Positions 7,405 through 27,057 of a stretch of 38,228 nt of DNA are shown here, one piece after another. The notes beneath the pieces were generated by a model, which saw only the letters and a program-made list of their open reading frames with translations, was not told the origin of the DNA and did no database searches. Source of the stretch: Filifactor alocis (GTDB taxonomy: Bacteria; Bacillota; Clostridia; Peptostreptococcales; Filifactoraceae); the NCBI GenBank assembly GCA_030529565.1, contig JAUMWQ010000003.1, forward strand, positions 1 to 38,228. The letters run 5' to 3'. Position 1 is the stretch's first letter. Each line of letters opens with the position of its first letter. Position numbers and translations under genes: made by a program.

Positions 7405-8988
7405 CTAACGATGATCTTGAGTCATCGAAAGCGCATAGTCGCTAGGGATATTGTACTTCTTGAGGAAGTATCGGTGTAGGATATGCTGAGCGATGATCAA
7501 AAGCACGACTCCTATAGGAAGCAGAACTAAGGGGCTTATTCCTGTAAAACCGAAAACAAGATACAGGACTGCGATAACGGCAGCCACGGTGCCCGCATAG
7601 GGTAGCTGAGTACTTACGTGGTCGATGTGATCCGCGCCCGAGAAGATCGAAGCCATAACGGTCGTATCGGATACCGGAGAAGAGTGGTCTCCGAAGATTG
7701 CGCCCGAAAGTACGGCTCCACTCATTCCTACGGTGAAGTTAAGATCTTTGGTGATCGTGTAAGCAAGAGGAATGACCAAGGGGGTCATGATTGCCATGGT
7801 TCCCCAAGAGGTTCCTGTTGCAAAGGCGATGATGATCGAGAGAATAAATACGATCAGAGGCAGGATCCCGACAGGGATGTTATCTCCCACGGCTTGAACG
7901 ACGAACTGCGCCAGACCCATCTCCTTGGTCACGGAACTTAGCGACCATGCCATTACGAGGATGGCTCCTGTCAAGGACATCAGTTTAAAACCGTCCACAA
8001 CGGTCGACATTGTCTCTTCAAAACTCATGATCTTTGTGGTGAGAGCAAGAACGACTCCCGTAGAGGCCATTACAAACGAACCCCAGAGAAGAGCAGCTTG
8101 AGCGTCGCAGTTTTCGAGCACGGTCATGATCCCTTCGGATGCAAATTCTCTTCCGGTATAGAGGATGCCGGCGATGATCGTAATAAAGGCCAGGGCGATC
8201 GGCAGAACGAAGGATCGGATCATCGGTCTCGTCGTCTTGGGTTCTCCCAATTCGTTTCCTACATCGAGCATCGGGCTTGCACCGGGTCGGGTAAACTCTC
8301 CCGTCTTCATGCATCGGACCTCCGCCTTGAGCATGGGACCGTAGTCTTTTCCGGTATACATAAGGATGCCGACAAAGATAAGGGTCAGGATGGAATACAT
8401 ATTAAAAGGAATACTCTTGATGTAGGCGGCAACGGGCTGAACCTCTTTGATCCCTGCGATCTCAAGACCCTGTCCGATCATTCCTATCTGATAGGCGATC
8501 CAGTCGGAGAGGAAGATCGCTGCGGAGGGGGCCGCCGTCGCATCCAAAACGTAGGAAAACTTTTCGGAAGAAATTCGATAGTCCTTACAGATATCTCGAA
8601 AAACGTTTCCGTCAACTGCGGCGACGAGGCAGTCATTGATGGATGTTGCCATCCCGAGTCCCCAAGTTCCAAGGCAGACGGAGCGTCTTTTTTTGAAACG
8701 TTTCTTTGCGGCATCGGCGAGGGCGAAACTTCCTCCAAGTCTCCAGATGAAGGCGATACCGACACCCATGAACAGGGTAAACACCAAAAGTGTAACGTTG
8801 TCCGCCATATTGACGACGATCTCATCCAAGGCCTTCATGACCCCCAGGATCGGGTTGTATCCGCTGACGATCAAAGAACCTGCGAACAGCCCGGCAAAGA
8901 GGGAGATGAGGACCTGTTTTGTAGCAAAACACAGTCCGATCGCCACGATCGGCGGAATAAGTGCCAGAATACCGTATGTAGTTTCCAT
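7405..8988 (-). CDS. NhaC-family Na+/H+ antiporter-type carrier (first copy)
   Basis: A 527-residue polytopic membrane protein of the NhaC/ion-transporter superfamily with about 11-13 hydrophobic segments. Recognisable text includes GTSWGTMAIMTPLVIPLAY and SGAIFGDHSSPVSDTTVMAS, the signature region of this family. Members exchange Na+ and H+ or carry amino acids with Na+. Here the second role is more likely, because the gene has a -24/-12 promoter and sits beside a sigma-54 activator and amino-acid enzymes (inferred). ATG 8988 is preceded by GAGGTATT. It is transcribed alone, with a leader of about 200 nt. The substrate cannot be read from the sequence. Confidence 0.88.
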   Translation of the reverse strand: METTYGILALIPPIVAIGLCFATKQVLISLFAGLFAGSLIVSGYNPILGVMKALDEIVVNMADNVTLLVFTLFMGVGIAFIWRLGGSFALADAAKKRFKKRRSVCLGTWGLGMATSINDCLVAAVDGNVFRDICKDYRISSEKFSYVLDATAAPSAAIFLSDWIAYQIGMIGQGLEIAGIKEVQPVAAYIKSIPFNMYSILTLIFVGILMYTGKDYGPMLKAEVRCMKTGEFTRPGASPMLDVGNELGEPKTTRPMIRSFVLPIALAFITIIAGILYTGREFASEGIMTVLENCDAQAALLWGSFVMASTGVVLALTTKIMSFEETMSTVVDGFKLMSLTGAILVMAWSLSSVTKEMGLAQFVVQAVGDNIPVGILPLIVFILSIIIAFATGTSWGTMAIMTPLVIPLAYTITKDLNFTVGMSGAVLSGAIFGDHSSPVSDTTVMASIFSGADHIDHVSTQLPYAGTVAAVIAVLYLVFGFTGISPLVLLPIGVVLLIIAQHILHRYFLKKYNIPSDYALSMTQDHR

Positions 8989-9775: not shown

Positions 9776-9883
9776 GTATACTGACATATTGATATTTAGC
9801 ATTATTTCTCATCTCGGTTATAAAGCAAATGAATTAACATCAAAGTCTGAATTACCGTGAATTTCAACGTGTCAACACACTAG
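9773..9883 (+). mobile_element. Element D (MITE-like), copy 1
   Basis: About 110 bp with inverted ends (left CTGGTATACTGACA, right TGTCAACACACTAG). The internal text TTTCTCATCTCGGTTATAA is shared with the other two copies. The right end reaches into the sigma-54 activator gene: the activator's TAG stop is part of the element's CTAG end. Confidence 0.8.
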
Positions 9884-11589
9884 GAGGGTTTGGACTTGTT
9901 GAGCTTGCGGTACAGGGTGCGCAGGCTGATGCCCAGAAGGTTGGCGACCTGTTTCTTGCCTTCGAGGGTGTAGCCGTAGCGGTCCAGGAGCTCGTCGATC
10001 TGCTCCTTCTCGCTCTTTTCGTCCTCGTAGTTGCGGGAGCGCGCGTTGCCGACTTTGCTGACGACATACTCCGGAAGATCCTTCAAGGTCATGGTTTCGT
10101 CATAGCAGAGGTTGGCGGCATATTCGACCACGTTTTGAAGTTCTCGCACATTGCCCGGCCAATCGTAGGTCAGGAAGAAGTCCTCCACGTCTTTTCCGAT
10201 GTATTTCAGAGGGGTATCGAGCTTTTCTTTCAAGGTCTCGATATAGTTCAAACTGATCGGCAGGATGTCCTCCTTCCTCTTTCTCAAGGGGGGAAGCTCC
10301 ATTTGAATGACGCCGATCCGATAGAAGAGGTCTTCGCGGAAACTTCCTTTTTGGATCATATCACGCAGGTTTTGGTTGGTGGCGGCGATGATCCGTATAT
10401 CGAGCTGGATCTTCTTTGTCGAGCCGACCCTCTCGAGCTCGTATTCTTGAAGAACTCTAAGAAGTTTGGGTTGCATGGATAGAGGCATTTCTCCAAGTTC
10501 GTCGAGGAAGAGGGTACCTCCCTGAGCCATCTCGAACTTCCCGGGTTTTCCGCCCTTTTTCGCTCCGGTAAAGGAGCCTTCTTCGTAACCGAAGAGCTCG
10601 CTTTCGAAGAGATTTTCGGGGATACCCGAACAGTTGATGGCAACGAAGGGGTACTTCTTCCTCTTGCTCTGTTCGTGGATGGATCTTGCTACAAGCTCCT
10701 TGCCCGTACCGGTCTCTCCCGTGATCAGGATGGGAGTGGGACTGTTGGCGAGCTTGGAGATCAGTTTCTGAACCGTTTCGATGTCACTGCTCTCTCCGAT
10801 GATGGGGTGGACGGTGGCCGAAGGCCCCGTCTGTTCATAGATCTCGTCCGAGAAACGGATCAGAATGCCTGAAAGCCTGTTGTTGCTGAATACGGGTTTT
10901 GTAGAGATCTTTGCCTTGAAGGTCGAAAGCGAAACATTTTTTTCAAAAAAGGTATTGCCCTTCAATATGCTCTTGACCACCGACTCGGGAAACAGCTGCC
11001 ACAGAGAAGAGGGAATGGTCCCACAGAGACTGAGGATGCGGTTGGCAAGCTGGTTGCAACGTACGATGGCTCCATGGGAATCGGCGAGAATCACGGCGTT
11101 TCCGGACAGTTCCAGACTCTCCTGAAGGAGGTTGTGTATGTCGATATAGTCGTGGTTTCCGCTCTTGTTGAGCAGAAATTCCCCTATCATGGCGGAGAGT
11201 TCCGTGATTGTATTGAGGTAGAGGGGTGTGTTTTCGTTGATCCGCCTCTGGCCTTCCTTTGTAAAGGATGTAAAATCGACAACTCCTACCACCGAGGTAC
11301 CTGCACGGATACAACAGAGAACCTCAACGGTCGAAGGGCAGTGATCTTTGAATCTGCAACCGATACAGGAAGACATCTCCCCGGGTGTGTTGACCAGGAT
11401 GCTTCCGTTGTTGAGAACGTCTTCGATAAAGGGTGCGTGCACGGCACGGCCCTTCTTCTTCAAGTAGGTAGGAGTGCAGAAGAAGAGTTGACTTTCGCTG
11501 TTGAAGATGGCAATTTCCAGCTTTAAAGAATTGGAAATCGCCAGAACCAAGCGTTCGATAAGGGGGCGAACATCTTCCAAATTATACAT
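9880..11589 (-). CDS. Sigma-54-dependent transcriptional activator with Cys-rich sensor region
   Basis: A 569-residue enhancer-binding protein. It would remodel sigma-54 polymerase at -24/-12 promoters using ATP. In order: an N-terminal region with a cysteine cluster C75-x2-C78-x5-C84 and C92-C93, a probable PAS region (about 150-250, VILADSHGAIVRCNQLANRIL), and an AAA+ domain with Walker A GETGTGKE (291-298), GSFTGA (338-343; the sigma-54 contact loop, usually GAFTGA) and GGTLFLDELGE. A Fis-type helix-turn-helix (about 540-562, QVANLLGISLRTLYRKL) ends the protein. ATG 11589 has AGGAG 7 nt upstream; ATG 11607 does not. Two -24/-12 promoters flank it, so nhaC and the SDR/gcvP-like operon are the likely targets. 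The cysteines suggest metal or redox sensing (inferred). Confidence 0.93.
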   Translation of the reverse strand: MYNLEDVRPLIERLVLAISNSLKLEIAIFNSESQLFFCTPTYLKKKGRAVHAPFIEDVLNNGSILVNTPGEMSSCIGCRFKDHCPSTVEVLCCIRAGTSVVGVVDFTSFTKEGQRRINENTPLYLNTITELSAMIGEFLLNKSGNHDYIDIHNLLQESLELSGNAVILADSHGAIVRCNQLANRILSLCGTIPSSLWQLFPESVVKSILKGNTFFEKNVSLSTFKAKISTKPVFSNNRLSGILIRFSDEIYEQTGPSATVHPIIGESSDIETVQKLISKLANSPTPILITGETGTGKELVARSIHEQSKRKKYPFVAINCSGIPENLFESELFGYEEGSFTGAKKGGKPGKFEMAQGGTLFLDELGEMPLSMQPKLLRVLQEYELERVGSTKKIQLDIRIIAATNQNLRDMIQKGSFREDLFYRIGVIQMELPPLRKRKEDILPISLNYIETLKEKLDTPLKYIGKDVEDFFLTYDWPGNVRELQNVVEYAANLCYDETMTLKDLPEYVVSKVGNARSRNYEDEKSEKEQIDELLDRYGYTLEGKKQVANLLGISLRTLYRKLNKSKPS

Positions 11590-11663
11590 AGTGATTCTCC
11601 TGTTCATTTAAATAAACGTTTTTCTAAAGAAGGATACCCGGATCGTTTACCTTATATGATCTA

Positions 11664-11950: not shown

Positions 11951-11967
11951 TTGGTATGAATATTGCT
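11951..11967 (+). promoter_or_regulatory. Sigma-54 (-24/-12) promoter of the SDR-gcvP-like operon
   Basis: TTGGTATGAATATTGCT matches TTGGYAYGNNNNTTGCW with correct 12-bp spacing. It gives a leader of about 150 nt before the SDR gene. Confidence 0.78.
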
Positions 11968-12128: not shown

Positions 12129-12926
12129 ATGTTACAGAAAAAAGATGTGTTGAATCTCAGTGGGAAGGTTGCCGTGATCACGGGAGCGAGCTCAGGGATC
12201 GGACTCGGGGTCGCTCAGCTCTTATCGGCCTACGGGGCAAGTGTGGTCATCCTCGATGTGAGCGAAAAGGGAGAAGAGTCTGCCGCCGAGATCAGGGCAG
12301 CGGGACGCGAGGCTTCGTTCTACAAGTGTGATGTAACCGATGAGGAACAGGTCAAGCAGACGGTGGATGCCATCGTTGATAAGTACGGACATATCGACAT
12401 CCTCCACAACAATGCGGGGGTTACTGTCCGAAAGACGATGCCCGAACTCAGCGAGAAGGAGTGGGACTTTGTTCTCGATGTAGGTCTCAAGGGGCTCTTC
12501 CTCTGCTCCAAGTATATCATCCCCGTGATGAAGAAAAATGGCGGAGGAAGTATTATCAATACAGGTTCCGGTTGGGGACTTAAGGGAGGAGATCAGGCGG
12601 TCGCTTACTGTGCGGTCAAAGGGGGCATCGTCAATGTCACCAGGGCGATGGCGATCGACCACGGAAAAGACAATATCCGAGTCAACAGCGTGAATCCCGG
12701 AGATACCGATACGGCAATGCTCCGAGATGAGGGAAGACAGACGGGAGTCGTCAAGGAAGACAATGCCGATATGGAAGACTACCTCAAGGATTGCGGAGTC
12801 GGTAGACCTCTGGCGAGGATCGGTATGCCGGAAGACATCGCTAATGCCGTGCTGTTTTTGGCGAGCGATCTGTCAAGTTGGGTAACAGGGGCCGCCCTTG
12901 TTGTAGATGGCGGCGGAATTGCATAA
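12129..12926 (+). CDS. Short-chain dehydrogenase/reductase (SDR), substrate unknown
   Basis: A 265-residue classical SDR, the family of NAD(P)-dependent oxidoreductases acting on alcohols, hydroxy acids or ketones. The cofactor motif is TGASSGIG (18-25), NNAG is present, and the catalytic pair is Y160-x3-K164 in YCAVK, with the NTGSGWG region upstream supplying the serine. The C-terminal SSWVTGAALVVDGGG is typical. AGGAGG lies 8 nt before ATG 12129. It is the first gene of a sigma-54-driven operon with two glycine-dehydrogenase-like subunits, so it probably acts on a hydroxy- or keto-acid derived from the same amino acid. That is inference; the sequence does not fix the substrate. Confidence 0.9.
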   Translation: MLQKKDVLNLSGKVAVITGASSGIGLGVAQLLSAYGASVVILDVSEKGEESAAEIRAAGREASFYKCDVTDEEQVKQTVDAIVDKYGHIDILHNNAGVTVRKTMPELSEKEWDFVLDVGLKGLFLCSKYIIPVMKKNGGGSIINTGSGWGLKGGDQAVAYCAVKGGIVNVTRAMAIDHGKDNIRVNSVNPGDTDTAMLRDEGRQTGVVKEDNADMEDYLKDCGVGRPLARIGMPEDIANAVLFLASDLSSWVTGAALVVDGGGIA

Positions 12927-12957
12927 ATTAAAGGAGTTTAAAGGAGGAAATGTTAAG

Positions 12958-14349
12958 ATGAGAGGATTTGAAAGTCATCCGTATATACCGAATTCGGTTC
13001 CGGAGATCCAGGAAGAAATGCTCAAGGAAATAGGGATGAGCTCTTTGGAGGAGCTGCACAAAAATGTTCCCGAGATACTGAAGTTGAAGGAGACGATGAA
13101 GCTGCCCAAGGCCTTCGGCTCGGAGTATGAGCTCAGGAGACATGTCGAGGGTCTGCTCAAGAAGGACGTGGATTGCAAGGACAACTTGAACTTCCTGGGA
13201 GGAGGTTGCTGGCAACACTATGTACCTGCGATCTGCGATGAGATCAACGGCAAGGGCGAGTTTATGACCGCTTACGGCGGAGAGCCCTACAACGATGAGG
13301 GACGCTTCCAGTCGCTGTTTGAATACGCGAGTATGGTGGCGGAGCTCGTGGATATGGACGTTGTGAACGTTCCCACGATGGATTGGTCTCAGGCGGCTGC
13401 CACGACGGTAAGGATGGCACAGAGGATCACGGATCGTCCGGAAGTGATCATTCCCGAGATCCTGAATCCCGAGAAACGCCTGGTCATGAAGAACTATGCG
13501 GACTGCTGCATCGACTTCGTGAGCGTAAAGTGCAACGAAAGAGGAGAGATCGACTTGGATGATCTCAAGTCGAAACTCAGCGATAAGACGGCGGGGGTCT
13601 ATTTTGAGAATCCGAACTACCTCGGCGTGATCGAGCCCAACGGACAGAAGATCTCGGATATGGTTCACGAAGTTGGAGGTTTGAGCCTGGTGGGGATCGA
13701 TCCTATTTCTCTGGGCGTGCTTGCAACACCTCCGAGCTACGGAGCGGACATCGTCTGCGGAGATCTGCAACCCCTGGGCATCCATATGAACTACGGAGGA
13801 GGACAGTCCGGCTTTATGGCGACCCGAGATGAAGAAAAGTTTGTAATGGAGTTTCCCTCGAGACTCTTCGGTATTGTTCCGACGAGTGAGAAAGGAGAAT
13901 ACGGTTTTGCCGATGTCGCTTACGACAGAACTTCCTTCGGACATCACAGGGAGCACGGAAAAGAATATGTAGGGACCCAGACGGCACTGTGGGGGATCAC
14001 GGCGGGGGTCTATCTTGCAACGATGGGACCGCAGGGAATGTTCGAGGTCGGACAGACCATCATGCACAATGCGCAGTATGCGGTTAAGAAGCTGAATGAG
14101 GTGCCCGGAGTGGTCGCCAACAAGCTTCAGGGAGCCTTCTTCAAAGAGTTTGTCGTAGACTTCTCGAAGACGGGCAAGAAGGTGGAGGAGATCAACCGAA
14201 GATTGTTGGAAGAAGGGATCTTCGGAGGAAGAGATCTTAGCGGAATGTTCCCGCAGTTTAAGGAGAGCGCTCTGTTCTGCGTGACCGAGATCCATACAAA
14301 AGAAGATATCGATCGTTTGGCAACTGCTCTTGCAAAGATCGTCCAATAG
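12958..14349 (+). CDS. Divergent glycine dehydrogenase subunit 1-like protein (GcvPA-like)
   Basis: A 463-residue protein related to the N-terminal half of the glycine cleavage P-protein (PLP fold type I). Family traits kept are FLGGGCWQHYVP (canonical FLGAG.YDHYIP), EFMTAY, ELVDMDVVN (ELTGMDVAN) and the NPNYLGVIE segment. Two canonical blocks are replaced: TPYQPEISQG reads GGEPYNDEGR, and the MYDGATA region reads TMDWSQAAA. This suggests a different substrate from glycine, or a changed reaction. ATG 12958 follows AAAGGAGG; the frame open from 12907 overlaps the SDR gene and is less likely. No gcvT, gcvH or lpd gene is in the window, so a normal glycine cleavage role is doubtful. Automatic annotation would call it gcvPA. 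Confidence 0.85.
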   Translation: MRGFESHPYIPNSVPEIQEEMLKEIGMSSLEELHKNVPEILKLKETMKLPKAFGSEYELRRHVEGLLKKDVDCKDNLNFLGGGCWQHYVPAICDEINGKGEFMTAYGGEPYNDEGRFQSLFEYASMVAELVDMDVVNVPTMDWSQAAATTVRMAQRITDRPEVIIPEILNPEKRLVMKNYADCCIDFVSVKCNERGEIDLDDLKSKLSDKTAGVYFENPNYLGVIEPNGQKISDMVHEVGGLSLVGIDPISLGVLATPPSYGADIVCGDLQPLGIHMNYGGGQSGFMATRDEEKFVMEFPSRLFGIVPTSEKGEYGFADVAYDRTSFGHHREHGKEYVGTQTALWGITAGVYLATMGPQGMFEVGQTIMHNAQYAVKKLNEVPGVVANKLQGAFFKEFVVDFSKTGKKVEEINRRLLEEGIFGGRDLSGMFPQFKESALFCVTEIHTKEDIDRLATALAKIVQ

Positions 14350-14373
14350 TTTAGTTCGGAAAGGAAGGATAGC

Positions 14374-15936
14374 GTGAAAAGAATAGATAGAAGTGAACAA
14401 GTCAGAACCAAGTTTCATCAAGCAAAATGGGATGAACCGATCATATATGAACTGAGCACCGAAGGCGAAAGAGGGATCCTCGTAGCAGGTGCAAACGAAG
14501 AAGTGGTAGCTGAGGTGGGGGATCCCTTCGCCCTCCTGCCCGAGGGAATGAAGAGAAACACGAAACTCAACCTTCCCGAAATGTCTCAGAGCAGGGTGCT
14601 TCGACACTATGCGCGACTTGCTCAGCAGACCTTGGGAGCGGATGTCAACATCGAAATCGGCCAGGGGACTTGTACGGTCAAGTACAGCCCTAAGGTAAAC
14701 GACCAGTTGGCAGGCTTGATCCGCAACTACCATCCGGCACAACCGGAGGAGACCGTTCAGGGAATGCTTCAGATCTTCTACGAAACAGACAGATATATGT
14801 GCGAGATCTCCGGCATGGATCGTTTCACCTTCCAACCGGGGGGTGGATCTCAGGGAGCCTTGGCGATGGCATCGGTGATGCACTCGTACTTCAAGGACAG
14901 AGGAGAAGACAGGGATGAGATTATCACGACCCTGTATTCCCACCCGTCGGATGCGGCGGCACCTGCGACCAAGGGCTTCAAGATCGTATATCTCCAACCC
15001 GATCCGATCACGGGACTGCCCGATCTGGAGCAGTTGAAGGCGGTAGCATCCGAAAAGACGGCGGGCTACATCGTTGCAAACCCCGAGGATACGGGAGTAT
15101 ACAATGGAAGAGTTAAGGAGTTTGTCGATTACATCCACTCCATAGGAGGGCTTTGCGGTTACGACCAGGCAAATGCGAACGGACTTCTGGGAGTTACAAG
15201 AGCGAGGGATGCGGGCTTCGATATGTGTTTCTTCAACCTGCATAAGACCTTCTCCACCCCTCACGGTTGTGGAGGCCCGGCCTGCGGAGCTACGGGAGTG
15301 AAGGCGGAGTTGGTACAGTACCTGCCGGCACCTGTAGTGGACTACGACGGAGAAAAATACTTCCTCAACTATGAGATCTGCTCCAACCCCAACAGCGTGG
15401 GCAAGGTCCGAGAGTGGATGGGAGTGGCTCCAGTCATCCTCAAGTCCTACTGCTGGATCAGAAGTTTGGGCGGAGAAGGACTGTATCAGGTGGCGAAGAC
15501 GGCGGTGCTCAACAACAACTACCTATTCAAGAAGCTGATGGAACTGCCCGAGGTCACGGCATACTATGAGGACGGAAACAATCAGAGGATTGAGCAGACG
15601 AGATACTCGGTGGAGAATCTCACGAAGGAAACGGGGATCGGTACCTTGGATATCCAAAGAAGGATGATGGACTTCGGTATGCACTACTGGACCTCTCACC
15701 ATCCCTTCTACCTGCCTGAGCCTGCCACCTTGGAGCCCACGGAGACTCCTTCGAAGAAGGACCTCGATGAATATGTTGCGACCTTGAAGCACATCTTTAA
15801 GGAAGCACGGGAAAACCCCGAGATCATAAAGACTGCACCTCACCGAAGCGTGACCCATCAGGTCGACGAGTCGGGAGTGGACGATCCCGAGCAATGGGCG
15901 ACCACTTGGAAGGTATATCTGAGAAAATACAAATAA
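14374..15936 (+). CDS. Divergent glycine dehydrogenase subunit 2-like protein (GcvPB-like)
   Basis: A 520-residue partner of the preceding protein, related to the PLP-binding C-terminal half of the P-protein. The PLP lysine is K291 in NLHKTFSTPHGCGGP, and HPAQPEETVQG is well conserved. GTCTVKYSPK corresponds to canonical GSCTMKYNPK. In contrast, the active-site block usually reading SAHGTNPASA is SHPSDAAAPA, and LQPAAGAHGE reads FQPGGGSQGA. The start is GTG 14374 with GGAAAGGAAGG upstream. It is 24 bp after the first subunit and surely in the same operon. It is probably a PLP-dependent decarboxylase or lyase acting on an amino acid other than glycine; this is inferred from the altered motifs. 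The stop is followed after 2 bases by element C. Confidence 0.87.
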   Translation: MKRIDRSEQVRTKFHQAKWDEPIIYELSTEGERGILVAGANEEVVAEVGDPFALLPEGMKRNTKLNLPEMSQSRVLRHYARLAQQTLGADVNIEIGQGTCTVKYSPKVNDQLAGLIRNYHPAQPEETVQGMLQIFYETDRYMCEISGMDRFTFQPGGGSQGALAMASVMHSYFKDRGEDRDEIITTLYSHPSDAAAPATKGFKIVYLQPDPITGLPDLEQLKAVASEKTAGYIVANPEDTGVYNGRVKEFVDYIHSIGGLCGYDQANANGLLGVTRARDAGFDMCFFNLHKTFSTPHGCGGPACGATGVKAELVQYLPAPVVDYDGEKYFLNYEICSNPNSVGKVREWMGVAPVILKSYCWIRSLGGEGLYQVAKTAVLNNNYLFKKLMELPEVTAYYEDGNNQRIEQTRYSVENLTKETGIGTLDIQRRMMDFGMHYWTSHHPFYLPEPATLEPTETPSKKDLDEYVATLKHIFKEARENPEIIKTAPHRSVTHQVDESGVDDPEQWATTWKVYLRKYK

Positions 15937-16654: not shown

Positions 16655-17764
16655 TTGAAAAAACTGGGACTGATCGTCAATCCCATCGCCGGGATGGGAG
16701 GAAGTGTGGGTCTGAAGGGAACAGACAGTTGCCTGGAGGAGGCTCGAAGAAGGGGAGCCCTTCCCAAGGCGAACAAAAGAGCGAAGAAGGCTCTGGAAGA
16801 ATTGGAACCCATCAGGGAGGAACTCCTCGTCTACACCGCAGGAGGAGAGATGGGGGGCAGAGCGGCGCAGGAACTGGGGTTTCGGAGCGTGATCCTCAGA
16901 GATGAAGGGTCCGATACGACGCAGGAGGACACCTTGGAGCTTGCACGGGCCCTGAAGGAAGAAGGGGTCGATCTCATCCTATTTGCAGGAGGGGACGGAA
17001 CGGCAAGAAACATTTATCAGGCAGTAGGTACCGATGTTACCGTGTTGGGTATTCCTTCGGGAGTCAAGATCCACTCGCCCGTCTATGCAATCTCTCCGAA
17101 GATGGCGGGAAGGCTGGCACTGTTATTTCTTAAAGGAGAGATCAGGGCGACAAAGGATGAGGAGGTCCTGGACATCGACGAGGAAGAGTACCGAAGAGGG
17201 AGGATATACACCAAACTCTACGGCTACCTCAAGCTCCCCGTGGAAAAACGCTATACGCAGAACCGAAAGGCCCCCTCTCTCCAATCGGAGTTGGCGAACA
17301 TAGATGCCATCGCTCACCAGATCATCGAAGATATGGAGGAGGATACCTACTACCTCATAGGAGCGGGGACGACGACAGCGGGGATCATGCACTATCTGGG
17401 GATCCAAAACACTCTGATCGGAGTGGATCTTGTCTATGATCGCAGGCTAGTGGAAAACGACGTCTACGACAAGAAGATCCTGGAGAGGATCAGGGGCGGA
17501 AAGACCAAACTCATCGTTACCGTTACGGGAGGGCAGGGTTTCTTGTTCGGAAGGGGCAACCAACAGCTTACTCCCGAGGTACTTCGGGAGGTGGGAAGGG
17601 AGAACATCGTCATCGTAGCGACCAAGATGAAACTTGCCGAACTTCAGGGAGCTCCCTTGAGGATCGATACGGACGATGAGGAACTGAACAGAGAGCTGAG
17701 CGGATACTACAAGGCGGTCGTGGGCTATCGTGAATATACGGCCTGCAAGGTAAGTGCGGACTAA
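16655..17764 (+). CDS. ATP-NAD kinase family protein (AcoX-like)
   Basis: A 369-residue protein of the ATP-NAD kinase/AcoX group. Bona fide NAD kinases phosphorylate NAD to NADP; the physiological substrate of this longer subgroup is not established. The nucleotide-binding signature is GGDGT at 112-116 in FAGGDGTARNI, and the N-terminus LIVNPIAGMGG is typical. The start is TTG 16655 after AAGGAGGAGAG. It stands alone, downstream of the amino-acid operon and separated from it by a terminator and several repeat elements. In amino-acid-fermenting Clostridia such genes often lie near glycine/betaine reductase or related clusters, so a link to the gcvP-like operon is possible but not shown. Confidence 0.85.
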   Translation: MKKLGLIVNPIAGMGGSVGLKGTDSCLEEARRRGALPKANKRAKKALEELEPIREELLVYTAGGEMGGRAAQELGFRSVILRDEGSDTTQEDTLELARALKEEGVDLILFAGGDGTARNIYQAVGTDVTVLGIPSGVKIHSPVYAISPKMAGRLALLFLKGEIRATKDEEVLDIDEEEYRRGRIYTKLYGYLKLPVEKRYTQNRKAPSLQSELANIDAIAHQIIEDMEEDTYYLIGAGTTTAGIMHYLGIQNTLIGVDLVYDRRLVENDVYDKKILERIRGGKTKLIVTVTGGQGFLFGRGNQQLTPEVLREVGRENIVIVATKMKLAELQGAPLRIDTDDEELNRELSGYYKAVVGYREYTACKVSAD

Positions 17765-20592: not shown

Positions 20593-20705
20593 AAGGACGA
20601 AGAAGTCCAAGCGGATACGGGGCTTGAAAACGGGTTATTGTATAAGGTGAGGAGATATAGTTGTGTTATTTTTTTGAAGAGCAGGGATCAAGGAAGGAGA
20701 GAAGG

Positions 20706-20999
20706 ATGGGATTTAAAATTTTGATGTATATCGGTATTATGGCGGTGGGGGTTCTCTTTGCCCGGAGCGGAAAAATACATAAGAAGATCTTTGAGGAGAT
20801 GGAGAAGATCCAACTCGTCTGTCTCCTGTTTCTGCTCTTTGTTATGGGCTGCAGCGTAGGAGCAAACAAGGAAGTTATGAGATCCTTCCCGAGCCTCGGA
20901 TTGAAGTCGATCGCGGTATCGGTGTTTACGATCAGTTTCAGTATTTTGTTTGTCTTTGTGTTCAATCGTTTGTTTCAGCTTGGAAAGTCGGAAAGGTAG
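20706..20999 (+). CDS. LysO-type lysine exporter, N-terminal part (DUF340)
   Basis: A 97-residue membrane protein with three hydrophobic segments (residues about 3-18, 36-54 and 65-85). It matches the N-terminal part of the LysO/YbjE exporter family, which expels L-lysine. In many Bacillota LysO is encoded as two adjacent genes, and the next gene supplies the rest. ATG 20706 follows AAGGAGAGAAGG; the longer frame from 20661 is not supported by a ribosome site. Only 8 bp separate it from its partner. The call is mainly by context and hydrophobic pattern. Confidence 0.75.
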   Translation: MGFKILMYIGIMAVGVLFARSGKIHKKIFEEMEKIQLVCLLFLLFVMGCSVGANKEVMRSFPSLGLKSIAVSVFTISFSILFVFVFNRLFQLGKSER

Positions 21000-21007
21000 G
21001 AAGTAGC

Positions 21008-21598
21008 ATGACGATAAAAATTATGATCGCAGTGATATCGGGACTTATGGCGGGAGCCTTCTTTTTGGAGGGCGAGCCTGCGTTCTTGGGCTCTGCCTTG
21101 GACTTGGGGCTGTGTCTCCTGCTCTTCTTCGTCGGTATCGATATCGGAAAAAACAAGGATGTGGGAAGGCAGATGAAGGAGATCGGACTTAAGGCGATCA
21201 CAACTCCCCTTCTCGTAGCGACGGGAACCATAGCGGGCTCCATCATATTCGGAAAGCTGTTCGGATACTCTGCGAAGGATGCCTCGTTGCTCGGAGCGGG
21301 TTTCGGCTGGTATACCCTTTCGCCGATCATCATAGCGCCGTATTCGGCGGAGCTCAGTGCCCTGTCCTTTCTTGCAAATGTTACAAGGGAGGTGCTTGCC
21401 ATCATCTCCATTCCTCTCGTGGCCAAGTACATCGGCTATACCGAGGCGGTTGCGCCTGCGGGAGCTACCGCAATGGATACCACCCTGCCCATTGTGGCGG
21501 GAGCAACGGATGCGCAGACGGCGATCGTCTCGTTCGTGACGGGTTTGGTACTGTCCTTATCGGTGCCGGTCATCATTCCGATCTTTATCGGCCTTTAG
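21008..21598 (+). CDS. lysO: LysO-type lysine exporter, C-terminal part
   Basis: A 196-residue polytopic membrane protein. The segments LLLFFVGIDIGKNKD, GAGFGWYTLSPIIIAPYS and LANVTREVLAII are characteristic of LysO (YbjE) lysine exporters; the E of TREV is in a conserved polar position. ATG 21008 lies 8 bp after the stop of the companion N-terminal part, with AGGAAG upstream. The pair would make one functional exporter. It stands next to a lysine 6-dehydrogenase-like gene and a sigma-54 activator, which supports a lysine role for the whole block. Confidence 0.85.
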   Translation: MTIKIMIAVISGLMAGAFFLEGEPAFLGSALDLGLCLLLFFVGIDIGKNKDVGRQMKEIGLKAITTPLLVATGTIAGSIIFGKLFGYSAKDASLLGAGFGWYTLSPIIIAPYSAELSALSFLANVTREVLAIISIPLVAKYIGYTEAVAPAGATAMDTTLPIVAGATDAQTAIVSFVTGLVLSLSVPVIIPIFIGL

Positions 21599-22334: not shown

Positions 22335-23768
22335 ATGGTGGAGAAGGAGTTTAGAGAGCATTCGTTTTTGAGGGCCTACGCCACCGAACTTCTCGATATC
22401 ATCGTGAACAATACGGAGCAGGGGATAGCCGTTATCAGCACCGAGGGTCGTTTCATCTACTACAATCGGGTCATGGGCGAGATCGAAGGGTTGCAAAGCC
22501 ATGAAATGCTCGGAAAGCATATCTTCGATATCTTCCCCTCCTTCAATATGAGCAACAGCACTATATTCAAGTGTATCCGCACGGGAGAAGCGATCTACAA
22601 CAACCTTCAGACCTATATCAACTTCAAGGGGAAGAAGATAACGTCAATCGTTACCGATATACCGATCCTTGTAGAAGGGGAGGTCAAGGGAGTTGTCGAG
22701 GTCGTAAGGGATATTGAGAGGTTGAAGAAGAGGTACGAGTCCGTTCACAGCATAGTCAAGAACGAAGTCGCCTTAAACAGCAGGCTGTCCAAGCAGAAGG
22801 AGAGTGCCTATTATTCCTTCGAGGATTTTATCACGGAGGATGCAGCGACCTTGGTTTTGATCGAGAGATCGAAGAAGATGGCAAGTTTCGGCTTAAATGC
22901 CTTGATCTACGGAGAGACCGGCACGGGCAAGGAGATCTTGGCTCAGAGCATCCACAACTTCGGCAGAAGAGCCTCCGAGCCTTTTATTGCTCAAAACTGT
23001 GCAGCCATTCCCGAGAACCTGATGGAGTCCATCCTGTTCGGGACGGAAAGGGGAAGCTTTACAGGAGCGACCAATATGCCGGGTCTGTTTGAGCAGGCGG
23101 ACAAGGGGACCCTTCTCCTGGATGAGTTGAATTCGTTGCCGACGGCTTTGCAGGCGAAACTGTTGAGGGCTCTTCAGGAAAAAAGGGTCAAGAGGATAGG
23201 AAGTCTTACAGAGAAGTACATCGATGTTCAAGTGATCGTGACCATGAATGAAGATCCGAAAAAGCTGATCGAAGAGGGGAGGTTAAGAGAAGACCTCTAC
23301 TATCGATTGAGCACCATGAGCATCCGGATCCCGCCCTTGAGGGAAAGGGTCTGTGATATTGTACTGCTTATCGAATACTATAAGGAGAGATTCTCTGAAA
23401 AGTTCGGTCTTTCTCCGGGAGAGTTTTCCGCTCAAGTAAGGGAGTTTCTTGAGAATTACTCGTGGCCGGGCAATGTCCGAGAGCTCAGCAATGTGATGGA
23501 GTACATCTTCGTCAATTCCAAGGACGAACAGGATATCCTGCCGGAAAACCTGCCCTACTATCTTCAGGAGCAAAAACGGCAGACGATTTCCGGTTCTGCT
23601 TCAAAGTCGTGCTACTTCGACGTGATCGACGACCACGAGAGGACTTTGATCAAGAATGCCTTGGAAAAAAACAATTGGAATGTTGCCCAAACTGCGAGGG
23701 ACTTGAATATAAAGAGGCAGACCTTACATAACAAGATAAAGAAGTTAAGCTTGGAACGCCCGAGATAA
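22335..23768 (+). CDS. Sigma-54-dependent activator, PAS-AAA-Fis (RocR-like)
   Basis: A 477-residue enhancer-binding protein. An N-terminal PAS domain (about 20-130, NTEQGIAVISTEGRFIYYN) would sense a metabolite. The AAA+ core has Walker A GETGTGKE (193-200), GSFTGA (240-245) and Walker B GTLLLDELN. A Fis-type helix-turn-helix (about 445-468, NVAQTARDLNIKRQTLHNKIKK) binds DNA. This architecture resembles RocR and similar amino-acid catabolism activators. ATG 22335 follows GAAGGAGG. A good -24/-12 promoter lies just downstream before the lysine 6-dehydrogenase-like gene, so that gene is the likely target, with lysine or a derivative as the likely signal (inferred). Confidence 0.93.
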   Translation: MVEKEFREHSFLRAYATELLDIIVNNTEQGIAVISTEGRFIYYNRVMGEIEGLQSHEMLGKHIFDIFPSFNMSNSTIFKCIRTGEAIYNNLQTYINFKGKKITSIVTDIPILVEGEVKGVVEVVRDIERLKKRYESVHSIVKNEVALNSRLSKQKESAYYSFEDFITEDAATLVLIERSKKMASFGLNALIYGETGTGKEILAQSIHNFGRRASEPFIAQNCAAIPENLMESILFGTERGSFTGATNMPGLFEQADKGTLLLDELNSLPTALQAKLLRALQEKRVKRIGSLTEKYIDVQVIVTMNEDPKKLIEEGRLREDLYYRLSTMSIRIPPLRERVCDIVLLIEYYKERFSEKFGLSPGEFSAQVREFLENYSWPGNVRELSNVMEYIFVNSKDEQDILPENLPYYLQEQKRQTISGSASKSCYFDVIDDHERTLIKNALEKNNWNVAQTARDLNIKRQTLHNKIKKLSLERPR

Positions 23769-23770
23769 GC

Positions 23771-23827
23771 AAAACGCCCAAATTAGAGCACTGACCGATC
23801 ACGATGCCCTAATACGGGCGTTTTTTT
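23771..23827 (+). terminator. Terminator of the RocR-like gene
   Basis: AAAACGCCC / GGGCGTTTT perfect 9-bp stem with a long 36-nt loop, then a T-run. Confidence 0.75.
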
Positions 23828-23900
23828 GAAGAAAGAAGGAGGAAACGCGCAGGTGGCTGGAGGTTTGACGTAAGAAGAGACTTGTGATTATAAGGGATTG

Positions 23901-23932
23901 AGAGGAGGATGAAAAAAATCTTCCTCTTTTTT
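23901..23932 (+). terminator. Insulating terminator upstream of the lysine gene promoter
   Basis: AGAGGAGGAT / ATCTTCCTCT (10 bp, one G-U pair), loop GAAAAAA, then TTTTTT. It ends 5 bp before the -24 box. Confidence 0.8.
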
Positions 23933-23936
23933 CGTT

Positions 23937-23953
23937 TTGGCACAGTACCTGCA
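23937..23953 (+). promoter_or_regulatory. Sigma-54 (-24/-12) promoter of the lysine 6-dehydrogenase-like gene
   Basis: TTGGCACAGTACCTGCA has a perfect -24 half and correct spacing; the -12 half is CTGCA instead of TTGCA. It lies 70 bp upstream of the start codon and 169 bp after the RocR-like gene. Confidence 0.78.
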
Positions 23954-24006
23954 TTGATAAGAAGTGAAAACAGGTAGAAGTTCTAGGTAGGAAAAGGAGG
24001 TAACTT

Positions 24007-25164
24007 ATGAAGTATTTAGTTTTGGGAAGCGGATTGCAAGGTAGAGTTGTCGCCTACGACATCATCAAGTTTGAGGAGGATGCGACGGTCGTGATTGCCG
24101 ACATAGACAAGGAAAATCTGAAGTTGGCGAAGAGTTTGATCAAGGAGGATAGGCTCTCCGTGGAGGAGTTTGATATCACAGATTCGGGGTCTACCGTTGA
24201 GCTGATGAATAAGGCCGATGTGATCGTAAATTCTCTTCCCCACACCTGGGATATCACGGAGAAGGTATATGGGGCTCTATCGAAGACAAAGGGAAAGAAG
24301 GCTGTTTTTACCGACTATTGGATGTGGGAGAAGCACTATGATTTCGATGAGGACTTGAAGAAGGCGGACTGCCTCGTGGTTCCGGGCCTCGGCATCGTGC
24401 CCGGTTTCGGAAATATCTGCTCGGGTCAGCTTGCCTATGAGTTTGATCAGTTGGAGGAAACTTCGATCTATTGCGGAGGGCTTCCCACAAAGCTGGGAGT
24501 AGCGCCCTTGGACTATATGATCTTATTCAATGTCGAAGCCTTGTTGGATCTCTATTTGACTCCGCCCACGGTGATCCGTGACGGAAAATTGGAGGTGGAG
24601 GATGCTCTGGACAACCTTGAATCTTACCTGATCCCGGGCTACGGAAGTGTAGATGCGCTCAAGACCGACGGGCTCTACAGTTTGAATAAGACCCTGCTCG
24701 AGAAGGGAGTAAAGAGAGCCTCCGAATACACCCTTAGATATCCGGGCCACTATCAGTTTATGCAGGAACTCGACGAGATGGGATTCTTTTCCAAGGAGGT
24801 TATCGAAGTTCGAGGACAGAAGGTCGTTCCGAGAGACTTCTCTGAAGAAGTTCTCAATACGCTGATGAAGAAGATGCCTGGAGTAAGGGATTTCACCTAT
24901 CTGAAGGTAAACGGCAAAGGACTAAAGGACGGCAAATACGTCCAAAAAGCATATGAACTTCTCGCTTACAGCGATGAGGAGGAAGGGATCACATCGATGG
25001 AGATCACCACGGCCTATCCCGCCTCGATCGCGGCTATGATCATTGCTAAGGATGACGGGGGAATGAGAGGTGTTGTGGAACCCGAGAACATCTTCGTCGG
25101 GGAACGGTTCCAAAAAATGGTCTCCGAACTCGCGAAACGGGGAGTAGTGGTATATGAAGTGTAG
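24007..25164 (+). CDS. Lysine 6-dehydrogenase-like (saccharopine dehydrogenase family) enzyme
   Basis: A 385-residue NAD(P)-binding oxidoreductase. The Rossmann motif is GSGLQG (7-12). The body follows the layout of lysine 6-dehydrogenase from Geobacillus: VVPGLGIVPGFGNICSG, GGLPTKLGVAPLDYMILFNVE, TLRYPGH and a C-terminal TTAYPASIAAMI. The length equals that of the family. It would oxidise the epsilon-amino group of lysine to allysine (cyclising to piperideine-6-carboxylate); related enzymes act on saccharopine or 3,5-diaminohexanoate, so the exact substrate is inferred. AAAGGAGG precedes ATG 24007. It is driven by a -24/-12 promoter and sits next to a RocR-like activator, a LysO exporter and an NhaC carrier. 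Confidence 0.85.
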   Translation: MKYLVLGSGLQGRVVAYDIIKFEEDATVVIADIDKENLKLAKSLIKEDRLSVEEFDITDSGSTVELMNKADVIVNSLPHTWDITEKVYGALSKTKGKKAVFTDYWMWEKHYDFDEDLKKADCLVVPGLGIVPGFGNICSGQLAYEFDQLEETSIYCGGLPTKLGVAPLDYMILFNVEALLDLYLTPPTVIRDGKLEVEDALDNLESYLIPGYGSVDALKTDGLYSLNKTLLEKGVKRASEYTLRYPGHYQFMQELDEMGFFSKEVIEVRGQKVVPRDFSEEVLNTLMKKMPGVRDFTYLKVNGKGLKDGKYVQKAYELLAYSDEEEGITSMEITTAYPASIAAMIIAKDDGGMRGVVEPENIFVGERFQKMVSELAKRGVVVYEV

Positions 25165-25416
25165 GAGGTATCGCATCGTGAATAAGATCCCGCCTCTTCG
25201 GGAAGAGAGTGTCCCGGTGGCTGTAGGATGCAAACTATAAGGGGACGGATAACGAGGGGGTGTCCTATATCGGATTGTCATAACTTCGTTTTTATACGGA
25301 AAAGGGATCGGTGATATGGAGGCTCGATGGAACTGATGAATACCGAGACAAAAGTCATATAGCACGGTAGTTCGATAGGAAGGATTGTTCTGTGTGATAG
25401 TTGTATAGATAAACGG

Positions 25417-25473
25417 AGGAGCCGGTTTTTATTTCCGATACAGGTTTATGTGGAGATAAGGCAGGCTCCTTTT
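25417..25473 (+). terminator. Possible attenuator in the leader of the second nhaC
   Basis: AGGAGCC (25417-25423) pairs with GGCTCCT (25464-25470), followed by TTT. The enclosed 40 nt begin with GGTTTTTAT. It lies 55 bp before the nhaC start inside a 360-bp gap (25165-25527) that has no gene and no repeat element that I can see. It could be a terminator of the dehydrogenase gene or a regulated leader. Confidence 0.45.
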
Positions 25474-25527
25474 GTACAAAGGAAAGATACGTCCATTGTG
25501 GGCGGTGTCGAAGGGAGGAGCGAAACC

Positions 25528-27057
25528 ATGGCAGAAAACATGTATTCGATCAAAAAGAGTAGGATACCGGGCAAGTTTGAGGCATTGCTACCCATCGTGG
25601 TCCTACTGGTTATTTTGATACCTAACTATATCTTTCATTGGGGAATAGACCCCCATATCCCCATCGTTATTGCAGCTGCAGTAGGAATGATTGTGGGGAG
25701 ACTTTGCGGATACAGCTACAATGCGATGCTGGCGGGGATGCTGAACACCATTAACAGAACTATGGAGGCAATGTTGATACTGATGCTGGTTGGTTGTTTG
25801 ACAGCATCTTGGATCCTGTCGGGAACGATACCGGCCATCGTCTATTATGGGCTCAACTTTCTCTCTCCTGAAATTTTTCTTCCTGTAGGACTGATCCTGT
25901 GCGTTACCATCGGACTCGCCTGCGGTTCGGCATGGACCACTACGGCGACCCTTGGGGTTGCCTTTATGTCGATGGGGGCCGGGTTGGGTATAAATCCGGC
26001 GATCACGGCAGGAATGTGTATCTCGGGAGCGGCGATGGGAGATAAGTTGTCGCCTCTGTCGGATTCTACCAACTTGGCGGCAGGAGTTTCGGAAACGAAT
26101 TTATTTGATCATATCAATGCGATGATCACGACCACCGTACCCAGTTTCTTCATAGCCCTGTTTATTTACGGTGGCATCAGTTTCTTGATGAGTTCAAAAA
26201 ACTATGATGATCAGATTGCGTTGGAGCTCCAACGGACTCTGAATCAACATTTTGAGCTTTCTCCCATACTGTTGATACCGGCATTGGTCATTATCTTGGT
26301 AGCAGTCTTTCGGATTCCTGCGATACCGGGGATTTTCATCTCCTCCATAACAGGATTTATCTTTGCTTTGATCTTTCAAAAATCTGGTGTGATAGATTGT
26401 ATCATCTCGGCACACTACGGTTATTCTGCAAATACAGAAAACGAGTTGGCCGATGCTCTCTTAAACCGAGGAGGAATGAATGCGATGATGTGGACGATAA
26501 ATCTTGCGATCGTCGCGATAGGCTTCGGAGGGTTGATGGAAAAGATTGGAATCGTGGAATCCCTATTGGGAAAGCTCGTGCACAGAATAAAAGGAGTATG
26601 CTCTTTGATTCTGATAACGATGGTGACTTCTCTGTTCTGCAACCTGTCCATGTGTGATCAGTACCTCGCCTTGATCATTCCGGCGTCGATGTATAAGGAT
26701 CTGTATGACAAGCACGGTTTGGCTCGTAATCTGCTCTCTAGGACATTGGAAGACATGGGTACTCTCTGGTCGCCGATGATACCCTGGACTTCCTGTGGAG
26801 CCCATCACACCGCAATGCTGGGAGTTTCACCTGTTCAATACTTTCCATTTGCCTTTATTCCGCTCGTAACCCCTGTTGTCGCTTTGGTTGCGGCCTACTT
26901 CGGGAGATTGATCTTCTATGCGGACGGTACACAGACAGGATTGTTCTCCAAGAAGTTGAAGAAGAGAACTCCTGCTTTTGCTCCGGACTATTCCCTTGAG
27001 GTCAGTCTGGCGGCCCTCAAAAAAATAAGAGGTGAGGAAGATGAAGAGGAGAAATAA
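25528..27057 (+). CDS. NhaC-family carrier (second copy)
   Basis: A 509-residue polytopic membrane protein of the NhaC family. The hallmark CGSAWTTTATLGVAFM and GAAMGDKLSPLSDSTNLAAG segments are present, as is the later TLEDMGTLWSPMIPWTSCGAHH. Family members are Na+/H+ antiporters or Na+-coupled amino-acid carriers (tyrosine, lysine and others). In this block a lysine or lysine-product carrier is plausible (inferred). ATG 25528 has GGGAGGAG upstream; the open frame from 25450 includes the leader hairpin and is unlikely. It is not closely similar to the NhaC at 7405. The stop overlaps the next gene by 17 bp. Confidence 0.9.
   Translation: MAENMYSIKKSRIPGKFEALLPIVVLLVILIPNYIFHWGIDPHIPIVIAAAVGMIVGRLCGYSYNAMLAGMLNTINRTMEAMLILMLVGCLTASWILSGTIPAIVYYGLNFLSPEIFLPVGLILCVTIGLACGSAWTTTATLGVAFMSMGAGLGINPAITAGMCISGAAMGDKLSPLSDSTNLAAGVSETNLFDHINAMITTTVPSFFIALFIYGGISFLMSSKNYDDQIALELQRTLNQHFELSPILLIPALVIILVAVFRIPAIPGIFISSITGFIFALIFQKSGVIDCIISAHYGYSANTENELADALLNRGGMNAMMWTINLAIVAIGFGGLMEKIGIVESLLGKLVHRIKGVCSLILITMVTSLFCNLSMCDQYLALIIPASMYKDLYDKHGLARNLLSRTLEDMGTLWSPMIPWTSCGAHHTAMLGVSPVQYFPFAFIPLVTPVVALVAAYFGRLIFYADGTQTGLFSKKLKKRTPAFAPDYSLEVSLAALKKIRGEEDEEEK

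What the first reader, a model, noticed from the sequence alone, without database searches (positions are those of the whole stretch)
12129..15936. Glycine-dehydrogenase-like subunit pair with altered active-site blocks, in an operon with an SDR
Seen: both subunits keep the P-protein fold text (K291 in NLHKTFSTPHG, QPEETVQG) but replace the canonical TPYQPEISQG block with GGEPYNDEGR and SAHGTNPASA with SHPSDAAAPA. Known: those blocks are strongly conserved in glycine decarboxylase, which works with GcvH, GcvT and Lpd. None of these is in the window. Inference: the operon may encode a PLP-dependent decarboxylase or lyase for another amino acid, with the SDR acting on a linked hydroxy- or keto-acid. 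It could be an undescribed amino-acid fermentation route.
Basis: partly seen in the sequence, partly recalled or inferred. Interest (0 to 1): 0.72.

Follow-up and report, generated by a model that had tools for sequence, protein, structure and literature searches.

The report
Glycine-decarboxylase lookalike without its partners
Many unrelated microbes carry a two-part enzyme that gene annotation calls glycine decarboxylase, but its active site is rebuilt and it occurs even in microbes with no glycine cleavage system, so it probably breaks down a different, still unidentified amino compound.

Summary
Window 12129-15936 encodes an NAD-type SDR, then a split P-protein-like pair (here PA', PB') that keeps the PLP lysine but has replaced the canonical blocks. 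The same genome has a complete canonical gcvT-gcvH-gcvPA-gcvPB-lpd-lplA cluster elsewhere, so this is a second, divergent pair. It belongs to a separate clade (SH-aLRT 100) of at least 66 sequences from Clostridia, Paenibacillaceae, Aminicenantes/Acidobacteriota, Chloroflexota, Asgard archaea and Bathyarchaeota. The motif changes hold in every member. Six genomes with the pair, three of them named isolates plus 'Lutibacter sp. B2', have no detectable GcvH, GcvT or canonical GcvP; five more lack a GcvH match, two of these near-closed. So it is not a GcvH-dependent glycine decarboxylase, although NCBIfam names it GcvPA/GcvPB above cut-off. The operon is a conserved catabolic unit: a divergent sigma-54 activator with a -24/-12 site, the SDR, PA'PB', usually a COG3199/AcoX-like NAD-kinase-fold protein, and variable importers, glycosidases or amidohydrolases. 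Best reading: an H-protein-independent PLP C-C lyase/decarboxylase for a hydroxylated amino acid or amine that the SDR oxidises. The substrate is not identified. Hydroxylysine is a candidate with only circumstantial support.

The parts
9880..11607 (-). divergent sigma-54-dependent activator, PrdR-like, with N-terminal CIGCRFKDHC motif
   Evidence: Pfam Sigma54_activat E 1.5e-71, PrdR model 376 bits but below its cut-off; same gene divergent to the operon in about 20 clostridial loci
11952..11967 (+). putative sigma-54 -24/-12 promoter, TGGTATGAATATTGCT
   Evidence: Whole-window count of such sites is only modestly above shuffles (18 against 11.9), but a GG-N10-GC site matching TGGCAY...TGCW lies in the regulator-operon gap of 19 of 21 relatives tested
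12129..12926 (+). SDR oxidoreductase; Ser147-Tyr160-Lys164; Asp43 after beta-2 suggests NAD
   Evidence: D43, S147 and Y160 in 55/55 and K164 in 53/55 orthologues
12907..14349 (+). PA' subunit (GcvPA-like, non-canonical)
   Evidence: GDC-P Pfam 196 bits; 33% identical to own canonical GcvPA, 43-81% to the PA' clade
13276..13305 (+). GGEPYNDEGR block of PA' replacing TPYQPEISQG
14374..15936 (+). PB' subunit (GcvPB-like, non-canonical), carries the PLP lysine K291
   Evidence: NCBIfam GcvPB 518 bits; 37% identical to own canonical GcvPB; P-protein fold by Foldseek
14938..14967 (+). SHPSDAAAPA block of PB' replacing AHGTNPA
15244..15246 (+). codon of PLP lysine K291
   Evidence: invariant 62/62
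16655..17764 (+). COG3199/AcoX-like NAD-kinase-fold protein (GGDGTAR)
   Evidence: Pfam NAD_kinase and NAD_kinase_C; directly follows PB' in most anaerobe and archaeal loci; in all 6 PA'-bearing genomes of 391 in the class, 10 genomes in all
7405..8988 (-). NhaC-type antiporter-family transporter, possible substrate or product carrier
   Evidence: Pfam PF03553; same or related gene at 13 loci

Best explanation
PA'PB' is an H-protein-independent relative of the glycine decarboxylase P-protein. The two subunits form one PLP active site, with the lysine on PB'. It is induced by a sigma-54 activator as part of a catabolic operon. The NAD-dependent SDR oxidises a hydroxyl of the substrate, a hydroxylated amino acid or 1,2-amino alcohol that reaches the cell free or as a glycoside, dipeptide or N-acyl derivative depending on the organism. 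PA'PB' forms a Schiff base with the amino group and breaks the neighbouring C-C bond (decarboxylation or retro-Claisen-type cleavage). The PLP-stabilised carbanion is then protonated instead of being handed to lipoyl-GcvH. Shown: family separateness, kept PLP residues, rebuilt pocket blocks, operon and promoter conservation, occurrence without any glycine cleavage system. Inferred: reaction type, order of steps, substrate class, and the role of the NAD-kinase-fold protein.
For: Separate clade from 35 canonical GcvPA, SH-aLRT 100, one change; same for PB. Clade-wide motif replacement with kept His/Asp/Lys. The basic residue equivalent to human GLDC Arg373, modelled to salt-bridge H-protein in PMC7259800, is R in 35/35 canonical and mainly L, H, V or K in PA'; Tyr164, an active-site residue there, is deleted. 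No GcvH, GcvT or canonical GcvP in G001 Enterocloster hominis, G005, G006, G008, G022 Cohnella phaseoli, G036 Dorea sp. 5-2; no GcvH match in G438, G469, G612, G673, G1065. Conserved SDR-PA'-PB'-kinase order across bacteria and archaea. Sigma-54 promoter conserved. Importer plus intracellular LacZ/Ebg-type or MGH1-like glycosidase in Paenibacillaceae, dipeptide-type ABC plus M20-like hydrolase in Chloroflexota, Amidohydro_3 plus TRAP-like transporter in Enterocloster.
Against: No substrate, product or activity is shown. Most carriers also have GcvH, so use of a lipoyl carrier in those organisms is not excluded, nor is use of another lipoyl domain (for example an E2) where GcvH is missing. The SDR is not next to every PA'PB' paralogue (L063, L068-L071). 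H/T absence in draft genomes and MAGs could be incompleteness for G006 and G008.
Confidence: 0.5

Rival explanations
1. A second glycine decarboxylase isozyme that borrows the GcvH, GcvT and Lpd made from the canonical cluster.
For: Fold and PLP residues kept; NCBIfam GcvPA/GcvPB models hit above cut-off; own genome has GcvH, GcvT, Lpd.
Against: Six genomes with the pair have no detectable GcvH, GcvT or canonical P, and five more no GcvH match; substrate-loop and H-interface positions replaced across the clade; separate clade.
Confidence: 0.07
2. A PLP enzyme for a non-glycine amino acid that still hands its product to a lipoyl domain, of GcvH or of an E2 subunit.
For: Ancestral chemistry uses lipoyl; many carriers have GcvH, some several; weak GcvH-profile hits in G001, G006 and G008 are of the size expected for other lipoyl/biotinyl domains.
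Against: No dedicated H-like gene seen beside the pair in any locus examined; the Arg373-equivalent contact is lost.
Confidence: 0.18
3. Specific substrate: 5-hydroxylysine or its galactosyl/glucosylgalactosyl forms from collagen. The SDR makes the 5-keto compound and PA'PB' cleaves the aminomethyl ketone end, giving a glutamate skeleton plus a one-carbon amine.
For: Beta-galactosidase and/or MGH1-like glycosidase beside the pair in Paenibacillaceae, Chloroflexota and others; a gene closest to trans-3-hydroxyproline dehydratase, below that model's cut-off, beside the pair in Aminicenantes L033; LysO and a saccharopine/lysine-dehydrogenase-like gene in the window.
Against: M9 collagenase not enriched among carriers, 2/17 against 1/45, p 0.18; glycosidases absent in most clostridial and archaeal loci; no literature hit in the held library.
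Confidence: 0.12
4. Threonine-type or other beta-hydroxy amino acid catabolism: the SDR makes a beta-keto amino acid or amino ketone such as aminoacetone and PA'PB' processes it.
For: In L118 the operon is followed by a BioF/Kbl-family gene and a threonine-dehydrogenase-like gene; in L069 by a CoA-transferase and methylmalonyl-CoA mutase.
Against: Each association seen once; does not explain the glycosidases.
Confidence: 0.13

Closest known systems
Two-subunit glycine decarboxylase P-protein GcvPA/GcvPB (Thermus thermophilus 1WYT/1WYU)
   Same: Two homologous subunits, P-protein fold, PLP lysine, His and Asp kept, C-terminal GcvP2_C domain
   Different: 33-37% identity, separate clade, substrate-loop and H-interface positions replaced, occurs without GcvH/GcvT
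Threonine dehydrogenase plus Kbl (SDR plus PLP C-C cleaving pair)
   Same: General logic proposed here: dehydrogenase makes a keto compound that a PLP enzyme cleaves
   Different: Unrelated PLP subfamily; Kbl is CoA-dependent; reaction of PA'PB' unknown
AcoX / COG3199 NAD-kinase-fold proteins
   Same: Same Pfam NAD_kinase domains, GGDGT motif; assignment to AcoX/COG3199 is from general knowledge
   Different: Substrate unknown; no close solved structure, only weak matches to bacterial diacylglycerol kinases and sphingosine kinase; also found without PA'PB', for example beside a dihydroorotase-like gene

Membership tests
Canonical glycine decarboxylase P-protein (GcvPA/GcvPB) | P-protein fold with PLP lysine, His and Asp | tested here: met
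Canonical glycine decarboxylase P-protein (GcvPA/GcvPB) | TPYQPE(I/V)SQG and AHGTNPA blocks | tested here: not met
   absent from all 66 PA' and 62 PB'
Canonical glycine decarboxylase P-protein (GcvPA/GcvPB) | groups inside the canonical clade | tested here: not met
Canonical glycine decarboxylase P-protein (GcvPA/GcvPB) | carriers have GcvH | tested here: not met
   several carriers lack it
Canonical glycine decarboxylase P-protein (GcvPA/GcvPB) | decarboxylates glycine onto lipoyl-GcvH | not testable with these tools
   needs assay
Glycine cleavage system gene cluster | clustered with gcvT, gcvH, lpd | tested here: not met
   none beside the pair in the window or in the PA' loci examined; present around the canonical pair
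Threonine dehydrogenase/Kbl pathway | PLP partner of the BioF/Kbl family | tested here: not met
   PA'PB' score on the glycine dehydrogenase models, not on BioF/Kbl models
NAD kinase (16655-17764) | NAD kinase domains | tested here: met
NAD kinase (16655-17764) | phosphorylates NAD | not testable with these tools
   needs assay

The most novel reading that the evidence does not exclude
An undescribed, widely spread catabolic pathway in which an SDR and an H-protein-independent descendant of the glycine decarboxylase P-protein cleave a carbon-carbon bond of a hydroxylated amino compound; the enzyme class is currently misnamed glycine dehydrogenase in databases.
Probability: 0.5. Interest if true: 0.78.

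Novelty: new variant of a known kind. Interest (0 to 1): 0.62.

Why it matters
Annotation models call these proteins glycine dehydrogenase subunits, so metabolic reconstructions can credit organisms with a glycine cleavage system they do not have, including GCS-less gut Clostridia and soil Paenibacillaceae. If the reading is right, the P-protein fold has been turned into a stand-alone PLP enzyme with a new substrate, found in gut, soil and sediment microbes and in archaea, and the substrate is testable with one purified complex.

Tried and rejected
Kinase structure (AlphaFold 88 pLDDT) and Foldseek: only weak matches to diacylglycerol and sphingosine kinases, no function. AF2 of PB' alone was moderate (68.9 pLDDT); it confirmed the fold by Foldseek but cannot place pocket residues. 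An alignment of the fused Aminicenantes PA'-PB' protein (L058, 931 aa) with separate subunits was unusable because PA' and PB' align to each other. Collagen link tested through M9 collagenase co-occurrence: not significant. Idea that the kinase feeds NADP to the SDR: not favoured, since Asp43 after beta-2 in 55/55 SDRs points to NAD. Literature searches for paralogous GcvP, AcoX function and bacterial hydroxylysine catabolism found nothing relevant in the held library. Chance or sequencing error for the changed motifs rejected: clade-wide.
Full report
Observation. The first is a classical SDR with Ser147, Tyr160 and Lys164 and an Asp43 after the second strand, the usual mark of NAD use; D43, S147 and Y160 are in 55/55 orthologues and K164 in 53/55. 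The second and third match the GcvPA and GcvPB models of NCBIfam above their curated cut-offs (479 against 364 bits, 518 against 441 bits), so databases will name them glycine dehydrogenase. The changed blocks are real. In alignments of 66 PA' with 35 canonical GcvPA, and 62 PB' with 34 canonical GcvPB, the Tyr of TPY is missing in all PA', the Glu of QPE is Tyr or Trp in all, REQ becomes RTS or RCS, and AHG becomes SHP in all PB', whereas the PLP lysine with its preceding His, the His of the changed block and the Asp are invariant in PB'. The enzyme is therefore likely PLP-active with a rebuilt pocket.

Second pair, not the only one. The window's genome (a 2.15 Mb, 80% complete draft) carries a canonical gcvT-gcvH-gcvPA-gcvPB-lpd-lplA run on contig C16 with TPYQPEISQG and SAHGTNPA intact. 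The two pairs are 33% and 37% identical.

A family. A scan of GTDB genomes found 59 further loci, from Lachnospiraceae and other Clostridia, Paenibacillus and Cohnella, Heimdall-, Hod-, Baldr- and Bathyarchaeota, Aminicenantes, Chloroflexota, a Cytophagales MAG and Desulfobulbus, within about 43-80% identity. Maximum-likelihood trees separate all PA' from all canonical GcvPA, and all PB' from all GcvPB, by one branch each (support 100). The root is by midpoint, so this shows two sides of a branch. Profile scores in 391 genomes of the window's class are bimodal: six PA' above 735 bits, the next match at 405. The family is sparse: 6/391 in the class, 17/250 in the Paenibacillus family sample, 7/301 in the Chloroflexota sample, 8/297 in the phylum sample around Aminicenantes. 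Some genomes hold two or three divergent PA'PB' paralogues with different neighbours.

No GcvH needed. Of 36 carrier genomes searched, six have no credible GcvH, no GcvT and no canonical GcvP: Enterocloster hominis, 'Lutibacter sp. B2' (its PA' groups with Clostridia, so the name may be wrong), a Marinisporobacter MAG, a Thermoanaerobacterales MAG, Cohnella phaseoli and Dorea sp. 5-2. Among 34 more carriers, G438, G469, G612, G673 and G1065 have no GcvH match; the G438 and G612 loci lie on contigs of about the whole genome size. The same searches detect GcvH, GcvT and GcvP in most of the control genomes. This is the strongest evidence against a GcvH-dependent glycine decarboxylase. In line with it, the position of human GLDC Arg373, modelled in PMC7259800 to contact H-protein, is Arg in 35/35 canonical sequences and mainly Leu, His, Val or Lys in PA'. 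The neighbouring Lys376 position still has Lys in 35/66, so this part is suggestive only.

Operon. In Clostridia the order is [sigma-54 activator divergent] SDR-PA'-PB'-NAD-kinase-fold protein, often with NhaC-type transporters. A -24/-12 site is found in the gap in 19 of 21 loci tested; the window's copy is at 11952-11967. In the window the kinase-fold gene is 718 bp downstream of PB' and may be a separate transcript. The kinase-fold gene occurs in 10 of 391 class genomes, including all 6 PA' carriers (hypergeometric p 4e-11, not corrected for relatedness). In four other genomes it occurs without PA'PB', in three of them beside a dihydroorotase-like gene, so it is not exclusive. In Paenibacillaceae the kinase-fold gene is missing from the locus and the core follows a two-component system, a sugar-type ABC importer and a LacZ/Ebg-type beta-galactosidase, or in four loci goes with a MGH1-like glycosidase. 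Two Chloroflexota loci have dipeptide-type ABC genes and an M20-like hydrolase instead (identified by eye from sequence). Enterocloster paralogues have an Amidohydro_3 protein and TRAP-type transporter genes (the TRAP genes by eye).

Mechanism. Shown: PLP site kept, pocket changed, no need for GcvH, regulated catabolic operon with an NAD-type SDR. Inferred: the SDR oxidises a hydroxyl and PA'PB' cleaves the C-C bond next to the amine, with protonation of the carbanion in place of transfer to lipoate. The importers and hydrolases differ by lineage but all would deliver an amino compound from a glycoside, dipeptide or N-acyl form. Hydroxylysine fits the glycosidases and a nearby 3-hydroxyproline dehydratase-like gene, but collagenase co-occurrence gave no support (2/17 against 1/45). 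I do not claim it.

Novelty. By fold it is a variant of a known kind. By tested features it is not a canonical GcvP. I found no description in the held open-access library, which lacks most subscription journals, so prior description elsewhere cannot be excluded.

Noticed in passing
window 22335-27057: A second unit downstream: another PrdR-like sigma-54 activator, a saccharopine/lysine-dehydrogenase-like protein (closest solved chain PH1688, 3abi) and a NhaC/ArcD-type antiporter.
   Followed up: partly
window 20661-21598: Lysine exporter LysO family split over two adjacent ORFs of 112 and 196 aa.
   Followed up: no
L058 7950-10742: In an Aminicenantes MAG the PA' and PB' subunits are fused in one 931-aa chain, as in single-chain GcvP.
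   Followed up: partly
L183, L184, L185: The COG3199 NAD-kinase-fold protein sits directly after a dihydroorotase-like gene in three small clostridial genomes without PA'PB'.
   Followed up: partly
L016 (record named Lutibacter sp. B2): Record is named as a Flavobacteriaceae genome but its PA' locus groups firmly with Clostridia and has the clostridial gene order; possibly misnamed.
   Followed up: no
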